From the IMG/VR virus record IMGVR_UViG_3300020214_000155, positions 1 to 20,503 of that record: DNA of 20,503 nucleotides; one strand, 5' to 3'. This document shows positions 1 to 9,099 of this stretch, one piece after another. This stretch comes from a virus. Numbering within the stretch: position 1 is the first letter of the stretch; every line of letters starts with the position of its first letter. Both the position numbers and the translations under genes were made by a program. The notes beneath the pieces were generated by a model. That model had not been told where the DNA came from, searched no databases, and saw only the letters and a list, made by a program, of their open reading frames with translations.

Positions 1-770
1 AATCCGCCACCCATCGGAACAGTATTTTCTTGGTACTGTGTCCAACCATCATCAAATTTATGATCTGGGTTTGTGCCCATCATGGACTTAACAGAATTCC
101 ACCAGTCTGCATCCACAGATTCCTTCTGCATTTTCTTTTTGGCTTTCTTTTCGGATTTCTTCTTGGACTTATTTTTGGAGAACATTGGAACTTCTTCGCC
201 CATATCATGCTTCTTGGCGGCTTTCATTTTGGCTACATGCTCTTCGCTTTCGCCTTCTTCATCATCGCCGTCCAAATCTTCGCCTGTTTCTTCTTCTGCG
301 GCTTCAAGATCTTCATGATCTTCATGATCTTCATGATCTTCATGATCTTCATGATCTTCATGATCTTCATGATCTTCATGATCTTCATGATCTTCATGAT
401 CTTCGTGATCTTCGTGATCATCTTCGTCAGACCACATTTTCTTCTTGGACTTCTTTTCTGCTTTTTTCTTGGACTTCTTCTTGGACTCCTTTCCACAGAA
501 TTTGCAATCACCCTCGTCACCGTCCTCAACATCAATATCGTCAGGCTCATCTTTATCGGAGACCGCATCGACCATTTCGCCGTCGCCGGTTACGTCTTCA
601 TCTTCATCTTCCATATCTTCGTCATGCATTTTCTTCTTAGATTTCTTTTTTGCTTCATCAATTAGACCGAATTTACTCATGATGCCCAAGGATTGTGGGC
701 CTTTTATTCCAAGAGCCATAGTGGGCATAACAGATTCATTGATTGCTTGCCATTGCTTGTATGATAACAT
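1..770 (-). CDS. Acidic/lysine-rich phage protein with EDH repeats, possible prohead-core protein (3' end cut by window)
   Basis: The minus-strand frame is open from ATG at 770-768 to the window edge (256 codons) with no stop. The start is supported by GGAG about 7 nt upstream. The N-terminus MLSYKQWQAINES fits the M-x-[ST]-[YF]-x-x-[FW] pattern of the T4 capsid-targeting leader and is followed by the Ala/Gly-rich segment MALGIKGPQSLGI. The rest is low-complexity: KKKSKKK clusters, long Asp/Glu runs, one CxxC (DCKFCGKE), then twelve tandem Glu-Asp-His units, more acid, and KKSEKKAKKK. It ends at the window edge in a folded-looking Trp-rich segment (DADWWNSVKSMM). The charge pattern and leader suggest a protein packed in the prohead core, as for T4 gp67/gp68 and internal proteins; this is inference. 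It is divergent from the gene at 860. Calling it coding is secure; the role is not. Confidence 0.8.
   Translation of the reverse strand, partial: MLSYKQWQAINESVMPTMALGIKGPQSLGIMSKFGLIDEAKKKSKKKMHDEDMEDEDEDVTGDGEMVDAVSDKDEPDDIDVEDGDEGDCKFCGKESKKKSKKKAEKKSKKKMWSDEDDHEDHEDHEDHEDHEDHEDHEDHEDHEDHEDHEDHEDLEAAEEETGEDLDGDDEEGESEEHVAKMKAAKKHDMGEEVPMFSKNKSKKKSEKKAKKKMQKESVDADWWNSVKSMMGTNPDHKFDDGWTQYQENTVPMGGG
308..415. repeat. 12 x 9-bp tandem repeat (GATCTTCAT / GATCTTCGT)
   Basis: Ten exact copies of gatcttcat (308-397) are followed by two copies of gatcttcgt (398-415). The unit is a multiple of three and is read on the minus strand as Glu-Asp-His, so length changes add or remove EDH tripeptides without breaking the frame. 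The near-identity of the copies suggests recent expansion by slippage. Confidence 0.97.
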
Positions 771-4705: not shown

Positions 4706-5041
4706 TTATTGTTGGGTGGAGCTTTTGGTCTTCTTTTTAGTCTTGGATGCCGTCTTAGTCTTGGATGCCGTCTTAGTCTTGGATGCCGTCGTTGAAGATG
4801 CTTTTGCGGCGACCCTGCGAGGCTCTGCAATAGCAATACCGTTGTAGCCCAAGGTCTTCGCAAGATTTCTTACGGCACCAGTGAGAGAGGAACGAGATGT
4901 AAACCGTGTGGAACCATCGAACTTGCGGGCCAACTTGGTTGGTTGAAGTCCACAGATGCTCACGGTTGCTTCGTACCACTGCTCCGAACCAGCCTGACGC
5001 TCGGAAACCTTCACTTGCAATTCATTAGTAGTCGTACTCAC
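4706..5041 (-). CDS. Small protein with histone-H1-like Lys/Ala/Thr tail
   Basis: A 111-residue protein starting at GTG (5041-5039), fixed by AAGGAG (5049-5054) 7 nt upstream. Residues 1-75 look folded (EQWYEATVSICGLQPTKLAR, FTSRSSLTGAVRNLAKTLGY). Residues 78-111 are a tail of Ala-Ser-Lys-Thr-Lys-Thr repeats, as in bacterial histone-H1-like and other DNA-binding proteins. The upstream region contains TTATAATAAG on the minus strand (5081-5090), also found as CTATAATAAG before the 6560 gene and possibly a promoter element. The DNA-binding role is inferred only from the tail. Confidence 0.75.
   Translation of the reverse strand: MSTTTNELQVKVSERQAGSEQWYEATVSICGLQPTKLARKFDGSTRFTSRSSLTGAVRNLAKTLGYNGIAIAEPRRVAAKASSTTASKTKTASKTKTASKTKKKTKSSTQQ
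4741..4790. repeat. 18-bp tandem repeat, about 2.8 copies
   Basis: tcttggatgccgtcttag occurs at 4741-4758 and 4759-4776, with a 14-nt partial copy at 4777-4790. On the minus strand it encodes the ASKTKT units of the basic tail of the 4706-5041 gene. Confidence 0.92.
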
Positions 5042-7231: not shown

Positions 7232-8521
7232 ATGTACAAACTGTATTTGCAGCGTAAAACACAGAACAGGGTCAGCAACGAAAAGATCGAATCACAGATC
7301 GAATATATCCTCAAGCGGGGCACGGCTGCGGGCCGGGGAAATACTTGGATCGTAACTAAGCTTCGAATTCCCCCTGTCCAGAAGGAAGGATTTTGGCATT
7401 TTACCTATGAGGTAAATTTCACCAAGATTCGTGGCGAACGGGGTGCAGAAGCGGAATACAACCAATGGGAAAAAATTAAGACCATGATTATCCAGACGGG
7501 TGCTGCTGCAAAGTTTCAGCAATATCCGTGGTTGGTCGTGGACCCTCAGAATAATGCCACTGCCGTCCGACTTCCTGTCGTCGTCACCACGCCAGCGGCG
7601 GCACAAGCACCGGCAGGACCACCGGAGAATATTGCAGACATTATCTCGCAGGCCAGCGAAGCCATTGCTGACCGGCTGTTGAACGGCGTCCGAGAAGTCG
7701 GAACGTCTCTTGGCGGGGTAAAGACATGGAATGATCTGATTATTCCGCCCGAATTTTTTGGGGCAGGAAGCGATCAGGCATTGAGCCAACACCCCGCATG
7801 GAAGGATTTGTATGATCTTGGGCCGCAAGTCCGGCTTTTGATGAACAATATTCAGCGAGCCGCAACGACAGGCGGCGAAAGCCGCAACCACGGCGTATTG
7901 TTCGGACATTCAGGCTGTGGCAAGACGACAACCTTGCTCTCATTCGAGAAAATGTTCGGTGAAGGTTCGGTACTTCGTCTGGATGCAACCAGCACCACAA
8001 AAGCTGGCTTGGAGAAAATGTTCTTCAATGATCTGACGGAAATTCCGCCGTTGGTCTTTATGGAAGAGGCTGAAAAGGCCGATCCCGAAGCGTTGAAGAT
8101 TTGGTTGGGAGCATTGGATGATCGTGGCGAAATTCGGAAAATAAATTTCCGAGTGAACCAGCTTCGCTCATTGAGGGTCTTGTTCTTCTGCACAGTGAAC
8201 AACAAGGCTCTCTTCGACAAGATGATGGGTTCCGATGGTTCTGAGGCGGGCGCTTTGTCGAGCCGCTGTGTGAGCCAGATTTACTTCCCTCGTCCATCCA
8301 ATGATACCCTTCGTCAAATTTTGAAGAAGGAAATTGACCAACACGGTGGCAATTATGATTGGATTGCACCAGCGTTGGATTTGGCAAAAGAAATGGGAGT
8401 ATCTGACCCTCGTATCGTCCGACACTACCTTGCTGGTGGCGACCGTCTCATGGATGGCGGATACCAACGTGACTGGAGGGCGATCCAGCAGGCACAAAAG
8501 ACTTTTCAAAATGGTGGTTAA
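7232..8521 (+). CDS. AAA+ ATPase
   Basis: A 429-residue protein starting at ATG 7232, with AAAGGAA 11 nt upstream. Residues 1-~165 form a separate N-terminal region ending in an Ala/Pro-rich linker (VVTTPAAAQAPAGPPENI). The AAA+ module has Walker A GHSGCGKT (225-232), Walker B PLVFMEEAEK (273-282), sensor-1 FFCTVNN (N323), an arginine-finger candidate SSRC (R345) and a sensor-2-like DPRIVRHYL (R394). The closest general look is a clamp-loader/RuvB/Cdc48-type remodeller rather than a helicase, but the partner is unknown. The coding sequence is visibly richer in G+C than its neighbours and has its own host-type promoter and flanking terminator, which suggests a separately acquired, early or constitutively expressed cassette. 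The structured RNA at 8530 follows 8 nt after the stop. Confidence 0.9.
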   Translation: MYKLYLQRKTQNRVSNEKIESQIEYILKRGTAAGRGNTWIVTKLRIPPVQKEGFWHFTYEVNFTKIRGERGAEAEYNQWEKIKTMIIQTGAAAKFQQYPWLVVDPQNNATAVRLPVVVTTPAAAQAPAGPPENIADIISQASEAIADRLLNGVREVGTSLGGVKTWNDLIIPPEFFGAGSDQALSQHPAWKDLYDLGPQVRLLMNNIQRAATTGGESRNHGVLFGHSGCGKTTTLLSFEKMFGEGSVLRLDATSTTKAGLEKMFFNDLTEIPPLVFMEEAEKADPEALKIWLGALDDRGEIRKINFRVNQLRSLRVLFFCTVNNKALFDKMMGSDGSEAGALSSRCVSQIYFPRPSNDTLRQILKKEIDQHGGNYDWIAPALDLAKEMGVSDPRIVRHYLAGGDRLMDGGYQRDWRAIQQAQKTFQNGG

Positions 8522-8529
8522 GTGACTCT

Positions 8530-8672
8530 CCCCACCGCAAGCGGTGGGGCTTCGGAGTATTCTAATTACGCAAGCGTAATCAGCAATAATTGGCGGCTTA
8601 CATCCACAAGGCAAGCCATGCCACATCGGAGTACCGACGTGGCATCCCTTCGGGTTGTGGTTTTACGCCGCC
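8530..8672. ncRNA. Candidate structured RNA with two hairpins and a four-way junction
   Basis: Two hairpins come first: CCCCACCG/CGGTGGGG (8530-8549) and ATTACG/CGTAAT (8565-8580), both with CAAG loops. An outer helix, GGCGGC (8592-8597) with GCCGCC (8667-8672), then encloses a second helix, CCACAA (8604-8609) with TTGTGG (8655-8660). This holds three back-to-back hairpins with no unpaired bases between them: GG-CAAG-CC (8610-8617), ATGCCAC.TCGG/CCGA.GTGGCAT (8618-8645) and CCCTTCGGG (8646-8654). The density of perfect pairing in non-coding DNA is hard to explain by chance. Strand is unclear: CUUCGG favours plus, while the single A.C mismatch (8625/8638) becomes G.U on minus. No Rfam family is recognised, and omega-RNA or IS200/IS605-end relics are alternatives. 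Confidence 0.6.
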
Positions 8673-8673
8673 T

Positions 8674-9099
8674 TTATAATAAATTCAACCTCATGTGGCA
8701 GTCAAAAACTTCGTACCCAAATTTTTTGTAAAACAGAACCAAATCTTGTTTGCAATCAAGCAACACTTTATAGCAACCAAATCTTTTGGCTTCTGCAATA
8801 AGGTGCCTTTGTAATAAAGAACCAATTCCTTTGCCTTGATGATCTTTGTGCGTGGCTACGTCTTCAACGTGGCCCGATTTGCTGCCCCCGTGGAGGAACT
8901 TTTGTTCTACAAAGAGTGTTGCAGCCCCCACTACATTCCCGTCGTCTTCAACGACGACGTATATTTTGACGCATTCTGGAAGATTTTGAAATAACTGCAA
9001 TGCGTCTTCGGGGGTCATATTTGTTGGTCTTAAATTTGAGAGAGTTTCAAAAAATCCTTTCGTCAAATCTTCTGGCTGTAAAGGTCTAATCGTCATCAT
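8674..9099 (-). CDS. Glucosamine-6-phosphate N-acetyltransferase (GNA1-type GNAT)
   Basis: A 141-residue GNAT, near the usual compact GNA1 length. Diagnostic segments are GHVEDVATHKDHQGKGIGSL (residues 76-95), which includes the acetyl-CoA pyrophosphate loop Q-G-K-G-I-G, and GCYKVLLDCKQDLVLFYKKF (108-127), equivalent to the GNA1 motif GCYK-x-x-LDC...FY-x-K-x-GF. The enzyme would acetylate glucosamine-6-phosphate with acetyl-CoA, leading to UDP-GlcNAc. This single-domain form is mainly eukaryotic and uncommon in bacteria, which normally use GlmU. The ATG at 9099 or 9096 lacks a clear ribosome site but overlaps the end of a small upstream ORF, so coupling is likely. It lies back-to-back with the RmlA-like gene, supporting a sugar-nucleotide role. 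Confidence 0.85.
   Translation of the reverse strand: MMTIRPLQPEDLTKGFFETLSNLRPTNMTPEDALQLFQNLPECVKIYVVVEDDGNVVGAATLFVEQKFLHGGSKSGHVEDVATHKDHQGKGIGSLLQRHLIAEAKRFGCYKVLLDCKQDLVLFYKKFGYEVFDCHMRLNLL

What the first reader, a model, noticed from the sequence alone, without database searches (positions are those of the whole stretch)
8530..8672. Unexplained structured RNA with a seamless four-way junction
Non-coding DNA between the ATPase gene and GNA1 folds into two hairpins plus a P1/P2-closed junction whose three internal hairpins abut without a single unpaired base (8604-8660). Three hairpins share a CAAG loop, and TCGGAGTA occurs twice (8552-8559, 8626-8633). No tRNA or riboswitch family is recognised. 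It could be a phage regulatory RNA, an RNA partner of the ATPase, or a relic of an omega-RNA/IS200-IS605 end.
Basis: partly seen in the sequence, partly recalled or inferred. Interest (0 to 1): 0.75.

Follow-up and report, generated by a model that had tools for sequence, protein, structure and literature searches.

The report
Miniature IS200/IS605-type phage transposon
The folded DNA between two phage genes is very probably not a regulatory RNA but a 154-base miniature 'jumping gene' of the IS200/IS605 family that has kept only its two hairpin ends, inserted exactly between two convergent genes; relatives of it sit in other phages, one of them inside a homing-endonuclease-like gene.

Summary
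The structure is real (RNA z -4.9 on +, -6.6 on -) and its stems covary with homologues, but it belongs to the minus strand and is a transposon, not a free-standing RNA gene. Window 8675..8522 (minus) is a 154-bp ends-only IS200/IS605-type element (a PATE/MITE).

Its left end (8675-8592) recurs in four other IMG/VR phage contigs. Its right end (8553-8522) aligns with a right end that, in L260, directly follows the C-terminus of a TnpB. Both ends obey the IS608 guide/cleavage rule: C_L TTAT with G_L AAAA, C_R TCAC with G_R GAAG. Sister mini-elements use TTAC/AAAG, and an autonomous TnpA+TnpB element of Bacillus phage BSP12 appears to use TTAA/AAGT.

The 'seamless four-way junction' is the left-end imperfect palindrome; the same branched layout recurs in a sister element, L325. 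The window has no tnpA or tnpB and no room for an omega-RNA scaffold, so it would have to be mobilised in trans by a Y1 transposase (inferred). New member of a known kind.

The parts
8522..8675 (-). whole mini-element (154 bp), left end to right end; read on the minus strand
   Evidence: left and right ends delimited by homologues with unrelated flanks and by the IS608 cleavage-site rule
8676..8679 (-). C_L / target tetranucleotide TTAT, retained in the left flank
   Evidence: TTAT precedes all six known copies of this left end (window, L247, L248, L092, L283, L287)
8592..8675 (-). left end (LE): 11-nt spacer, G_L, branched palindrome, 3' extension, outer helix P1
   Evidence: model R1 hits in five virus records, E 1e-24 to 1e-30 (three of its sequences built the model)
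8661..8664 (-). G_L guide AAAA, directly 5' of the left palindrome
   Evidence: pairs with TTAT under the IS608 rule; sister elements have AAAG with TTAC
8604..8660 (-). left imperfect palindrome IP_L: P2 CCACAA/TTGTGG closing three abutting hairpins (the 'seamless four-way junction')
   Evidence: DNA fold z -5.5 for the LE core; P2 compensatory change A-T to G-C in L283; same layout in L325
8618..8645 (-). central hairpin of IP_L, ATGCCACGTCGG-TACT-CCGATGTGGCAT
   Evidence: 5 two-sided compensatory changes against L247, none broken
8602..8603 (-). 3' extension AT of IP_L (position of A42/T43 of IS608, which form base triplets with G_L:C_L)
   Evidence: AT in window, L247, L283, L325, L332, BSP12; IS608 triplets in PMC5934647; A missing in L326
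8565..8580 (-). small spacer hairpin ATTACG-CTTG-CGTAAT between the two ends
   Evidence: sequence and fold only; no homologue found
8522..8553 (-). right end (RE): GAAG + hairpin + AGAG + TCAC
   Evidence: aligns with the L247/L259/L260 right end, score 27 against 15.2 +/- 2.1 in shuffles; pattern GAAGCC..GG..TCAC
8550..8553 (-). G_R guide GAAG
   Evidence: same in L247, L325, L332, BSP12
8530..8549 (-). right palindrome IP_R, CCCCACCG-CTTG-CGGTGGGG
   Evidence: 3 two-sided compensatory changes against L247, none broken
8522..8525 (-). C_R right cleavage site TCAC, the last 4 nt of the element
   Evidence: right flanks diverge directly after TCAC in L247, L259, L260, L325, L326
8674..9099 (-). 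GNAT acetyltransferase gene (neighbour, not part of the element); its stop codon TAA straddles the left junction (T from the target, AA from the element)
   Evidence: ORF and Pfam PF00583 E 5e-18
7232..8521 (+). ATPase gene (neighbour); its stop codon abuts the right end
   Evidence: ORF; weak AAA_22 match below Pfam's cut-off; relatives in five contigs

Best explanation
Window 8675..8522 (minus strand) is a non-autonomous, ends-only transposable element of the IS200/IS605 type (a palindrome-associated transposable element, PATE). SHOWN by sequence: it has a left end and a right end, each a subterminal palindrome preceded by a 4-nt guide (G_L AAAA, G_R GAAG) that matches, under the IS608 base-pairing rule, the 4-nt cleavage site at its junction (C_L TTAT in the left flank, C_R TCAC at the right tip); both ends are repeated, with unrelated flanks, in other phages, and the related right end directly follows a tnpB 3' end. 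INFERRED: when the phage DNA is single-stranded (replication, repair), a Y1 HUH transposase TnpA supplied in trans by a phage or host element binds the two palindromes on this strand, the guides position the cleavage sites, the element leaves as a single-stranded circle and re-enters 3' of a TTAT. The branched junction is thus a transposase-recognised DNA structure; any RNA made from it is incidental. It has lost tnpA, tnpB and the omega-RNA scaffold.
For: Left end in six copies in five contigs, each preceded by TTAT, with otherwise unrelated flanks. Right end aligns with L247/L259/L260; in L260 it directly follows a TnpB C-terminus (PF07282). L247 holds a 324-bp LE + tnpB-3' + RE copy inside a DUF7487/TnsA-like endonuclease gene, and leaving the element out keeps the reading frame. 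Guide and cleavage sites covary: TTAT/AAAA (window family), TTAC/AAAG (L325, L326, L332), TTAA/AAGT (BSP12), all with TCAC/GAAG on the right; IS608 has TTAC/AAAG and TCAA/GAAT (PMC5934647). L325 and L326 share a 96.6% identical 356-bp match in unrelated surroundings, which fixes the boundaries at (T)TTAC and TCAC. BSP12 encodes a Y1 TnpA (PF01797, E 7e-45) and a TnpB next to ends of the same layout. In the 20.5-kb window only this site fits C_L-spacer-G_L-stem-AT. Nine two-sided compensatory changes, none broken.
Against: No Y1 transposase was found in the window or in the related phage fragments, so the mobiliser is not identified. No empty site for the window's own insertion exists in the data: the relatives have other genes there. 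The window's copy is single in its record. The guide rule was used to place the window's exact left boundary, so that part is partly circular. The C_L/G_L assignment in BSP12 is my reading of the sequence, not an annotated or measured site. The outer helix P1 never varies and so is untested.
Confidence: 0.93

Rival explanations
1. A phage-encoded regulatory or structural RNA transcribed from the minus strand.
For: Strong, covarying structure; a promoter-like TTGACT-18-TATTAT just upstream on the minus strand; stable CTTG tetraloops.
Against: Copies are transposed units with unrelated flanks and fixed ends, one inside a gene; covariation is equally expected of a DNA hairpin read by a Y1 transposase; no Rfam match.
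Confidence: 0.04
2. A transposon remnant that now serves the phage as a bidirectional terminator or as 3'-end protection for the convergent GNAT and ATPase messages (as REP-like hairpins can). Compatible with the best explanation as a secondary role.
For: It exactly fills the gap between two convergent stop codons and both strands fold strongly.
Against: No T-run follows the strong hairpins; only a weak terminator-like site was called here. Other copies lie inside a gene or after an existing terminator-like hairpin.
Confidence: 0.2
3. A functional omega-RNA (reRNA) guiding a TnpB in trans.
For: The related right end follows tnpB directly in L260, where an omega-RNA 3' end is expected; longer sister copies (L247, L325, L332) keep much more sequence between the ends.
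Against: Only about 38 nt lie between the window's left and right ends, with no trace of the sequence that sister copies keep there; no TnpB in the window.
Confidence: 0.04
4. An end of an IS607-type (serine recombinase) TnpB element rather than an IS605-type one.
For: A serine recombinase gene and a second TnpB lie on the same contig as L260.
Against: Subterminal palindromes with guide/cleavage-site covariation, a fixed 4-nt left target and the BSP12 Y1 TnpA element of the same layout point to Y1 chemistry; that recombinase gene is about 1 kb away and its TnpB is not followed by this right end.
Confidence: 0.03

Closest known systems
PATE-like element of Halanaerobium hydrogeniformans (IS200/IS605 ends only; PMC7290912)
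   Same: Left-end hairpin, no tnpA, and (in the L247 copy) the last stretch of tnpB plus the complete right end.
   Different: Phage rather than bacterial chromosome; 154 bp against about 271 nt; the left palindrome is three-branched; the window copy has no tnpB remnant.
IS608 of Helicobacter pylori (PMC5934647)
   Same: Guide 5' of each palindrome, C_L and C_R sites, insertion 3' of a tetranucleotide, AT 3' extension of the left palindrome.
   Different: C_L TTAT/G_L AAAA instead of TTAC/AAAG; C_R TCAC/G_R GAAG instead of TCAA/GAAT; spacer of 11 instead of 15 nt; branched left palindrome with an outer helix; no genes.
TnpA+TnpB IS200/IS605 element of Bacillus phage BSP12 (MH707429, locus L337)
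   Same: Same right-end layout (GAAG-hairpin-TAGT-TCAC) and a similar left end with an outer helix and a branched palindrome; guide rule met.
   Different: Autonomous; C_L/G_L TTAA/AAGT (my reading); sequence otherwise unrelated.
ISCaje1-4 of T4-like Campylobacter phages CP220/CPt10 (PMC2853527)
   Same: IS200/IS605 elements, mostly TnpB-only, living in the genomes of T4-like phages.
   Different: Gene-bearing copies; the ISCaje3 left end folds around a simple hairpin.

Membership tests
IS200/IS605 (Y1) transposon ends | Subterminal palindromes at both ends on one strand | tested here: met
   IP_L 8604-8660 and IP_R 8530-8549; folds and compensatory changes
IS200/IS605 (Y1) transposon ends | 4-nt guide 5' of each palindrome that base-pairs with the cleavage site by the IS608 rule | tested here: met
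   TTAT/AAAA and TCAC/GAAG; covaries in sister elements (IS608 sites from PMC5934647)
IS200/IS605 (Y1) transposon ends | Insertion 3' of a fixed short target kept in the left flank, with no target duplication | tested here: met
   TTAT before six of six copies of this left end; right flanks all differ. The empty site itself was not seen for the window.
IS200/IS605 (Y1) transposon ends | Y1 HUH transposase tnpA (autonomous members) | tested here: not met
   no PF01797 in the window or the related fragments; hence filed as ends-only, not as a complete IS
IS200/IS605 (Y1) transposon ends | Y1 TnpA cleaves these ends as single strands | not testable with these tools
   needs biochemistry
PATE / ends-only IS605 derivative | Both ends, no transposase ORF, related to a gene-bearing element | tested here: met
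   154 bp with no transposase ORF; right-end family follows a tnpB C-terminus in L260
TnpB omega-RNA | Scaffold of about 100 nt or more upstream of the right end | tested here: not met
   about 38 nt between LE and RE
Rfam families incl. HEARO, riboswitches, group I/II introns | Match at gathering score | tested here: not met
   0 matches; relaxed search gives chance hits only
tRNA/tmRNA | ARAGORN call | tested here: not met
   0 genes

The most novel reading that the evidence does not exclude
These phages carry a distinct clade of IS200/IS605-type mini-elements whose left end is a conserved four-way-junction DNA structure with an outer helix, and which have naturally re-programmed their target by paired changes in guide and cleavage site (TTAC/AAAG, TTAT/AAAA, TTAA/AAGT). 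The longer minis (L247, L325, L332) would also keep an omega-RNA that a TnpB could use in trans, using the sequence next to each insertion as guide.
Probability: 0.3. Interest if true: 0.6.

Novelty: new member of a known kind. Interest (0 to 1): 0.4.

Why it matters
It removes a tempting 'new structured RNA' from the list and replaces it with a concrete, testable object: a miniature single-strand transposon inside a phage. It gives natural examples of the IS608 guide/target code changing in step on both sides (TTAC/AAAG and TTAT/AAAA, perhaps TTAA/AAGT), a code otherwise altered by engineering. It also warns that highly structured, covarying intergenic segments in phages can be DNA transposon ends, so covariation alone does not prove an RNA function.

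Tried and rejected
Rfam at gathering and relaxed thresholds on the window, and on L247: only chance hits; the MIR439 hit on L247 (27.6 bits against a gathering score of 90) reflects a generic long palindrome. tRNA/tmRNA: none. blastn against phage and plasmid records with the window segment or the L247 element: nothing meaningful. GNAT as bait in viral contigs: no relative. Left-end model in 299 genomes of one bacterial phylum: one weak hit, inside a PIN-domain-like ORF (my reading of its sequence), rejected. An attC/integron site, a diversity-generating-retroelement hairpin and a group I intron (for the L247 insert) were considered and dropped: no group I match up to E 10, the right end abuts tnpB, and the ends follow Y1 rules. 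The L287 right-end coordinates in alignment A2 were mis-set, so that alignment was not used.

Full report
OBSERVATION. Folding is far better than chance on both strands, and better on the minus strand (z -6.62) than on the plus strand (z -4.87). With DNA parameters, the minus-strand left part folds into P1, an internal loop, P2 and three hairpins that abut without an unpaired base. There is no tRNA and no Rfam match; relaxed hits are chance. The record is a 20.5-kb virus contig.

FIRST CLUE: THE PLACE. The segment lies between two convergent genes, the ATPase (+, ends 8521) and a GNAT acetyltransferase (-, ends 8674). Five relatives of the ATPase at 61-63% amino-acid identity have the same neighbours upstream and the same NTP-transferase gene downstream, but different DNA in between, and nothing like the segment next to the ATPase or elsewhere in their records. 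So it is an insertion in a variable region, not a partner of the ATPase.

SECOND CLUE: HOMOLOGUES. Pattern scans of IMG/VR found the left 80 nt again, 90% identical over a 91-base stretch, in two contigs of one metagenome: one copy at the end of a 44-kb contig (L092) and two in a 32-kb contig (L247, L248). A later scan found a more divergent version in two further contigs, L283 and L287. Each copy is preceded by TTAT and otherwise sits in unrelated DNA. Window and L247 differ in the central hairpin by five two-sided compensatory changes with no broken pair; P2 has a compensatory A-T to G-C change in L283; the right hairpin has three. A model of the left end hits the window and the four other contigs and none of the ATPase relatives.

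THIRD CLUE: IT IS A TRANSPOSON END. In L247 the copy is 324 bp long and interrupts a DUF7487/TnsA-like endonuclease gene; leaving it out keeps the reading frame (...WLAESY|PVKCDKNKVYFRSS...), and Xanthomonas phage phiXF1 has a continuous homologue across that point. Its 3' part ends TAGAATGCTGGAAGCC-GCAGGGCTTGCCCTGC-GGTAGGTCAC, which aligns with the window's other end, TAGAATACTCCGAAGCC...GGGGAGAGTCAC (score 27 against 15.2 +/- 2.1 in 2000 shuffles, none as high; the pair was chosen after seeing it). The same right end occurs at the start of both contigs with different right flanks, and in L260 it directly follows the C-terminal 76 residues of a TnpB (PF07282 match). L247 is therefore an internally deleted TnpB-type element, and the window is a still shorter one.

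THE RULE. In IS608 the transposase recognises palindromes, and a 4-nt guide 5' of each palindrome pairs with the cleavage site: G_L AAAG with C_L TTAC, and G_R GAAT with C_R TCAA (PMC5934647). In the window the 4 nt 5' of P2 are AAAA and the left junction is TTAT; the 4 nt 5' of the right hairpin are GAAG and the right tip is TCAC. Both pairs fit (positions 1-2 and 4 Watson-Crick; the pairing scheme is the one given for IS608 positions 16-17 in that paper plus my recollection for position 4). The two bases 3' of P2 are AT, as in IS608, where A42/T43 form triplets with the guide pairs. Among records of the same group, two mini-elements, L325 and L326, share a 96.6% identical 356-bp match with unrelated flanks, and a third, L332, has the same layout; all three use TTAC with AAAG, and their right ends are again GAAG...TCAC. 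An autonomous element in Bacillus phage BSP12, with a Y1 TnpA (PF01797, E 7e-45) and a TnpB, has the same right end and, by my reading, TTAA/AAGT on the left with an outer helix and a branched palindrome. The changes in guide and target in step are the strongest argument that the mechanism is IS608-like.

THE FOUR-WAY JUNCTION. The left palindrome of L325 is again a closing stem (CCCCTAC/GTAGGGG) around three abutting hairpins; L332 can be drawn the same way and folds so when a few flanking bases are included, but its minimum-energy DNA fold for the exact palindrome does not return the closing stem, and L247 folds with a short interruption. The annotated left end of ISCaje3 in Campylobacter phage CP220, by contrast, folds around a simple hairpin. 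The literature searched here did not turn up a description of branched left ends, but ISfinder could not be searched, so I do not claim novelty for it.

WHAT IT IS NOT. Only about 38 nt lie between the window's two ends, so it lacks the tnpB-3'/omega-RNA region that the longer sister copies keep; it is unlikely to guide TnpB. No Y1 transposase was found in the window or in the related fragments; mobilisation would have to be in trans. That step, the single-strand circle and re-insertion are inferred from IS608, not shown.

KNOWN KIND. Ends-only IS605 derivatives are known as PATEs, for example in Halanaerobium (LE hairpin, last 58 nt of tnpB, complete RE; PMC7290912), and IS200/IS605 elements are known in T4-like Campylobacter phages (PMC2853527). 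The window element is a new member of that kind.

Noticed in passing
L247 5537-6913: A DUF7487/TnsA-like (homing-endonuclease-like) gene is interrupted by a 324-bp ends-plus-tnpB-3' mini-element whose length is a multiple of three; leaving it out keeps the frame, so precise excision would restore the gene.
   Followed up: partly
L325, L326, L332 (records G010, G011, G002): Three further IS200/IS605-type minis of 312-349 bp (TTAC target) that keep a probably omega-RNA-like stretch before the right end (CTTGG.GTAAGACC in L326 and L332).
   Followed up: partly
L283 9829-9908 and L287 1982-2061: Left-end copies sharing about 105 bp, after which the sequences diverge with no recognisable right end: possibly solo left ends.
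   Followed up: no
L260 1313-3572: A serine recombinase ORF and a second, 360-aa TnpB on the same contig: possibly a separate IS607-like element, with other ORFs in between.
   Followed up: no
window 8674-8679: The GNAT stop codon TAA straddles the left junction (T from the target, AA from the element), so the insertion may have set the gene's present end.
   Followed up: no
window 275-440: A 9-bp tandem array (about 13 units) coding for an Asp-His-Glu repeat in a charged minus-strand ORF.
   Followed up: no
window 4737-4790: Three exact 18-bp tandem copies inside a basic minus-strand ORF (4706-5041).
   Followed up: no
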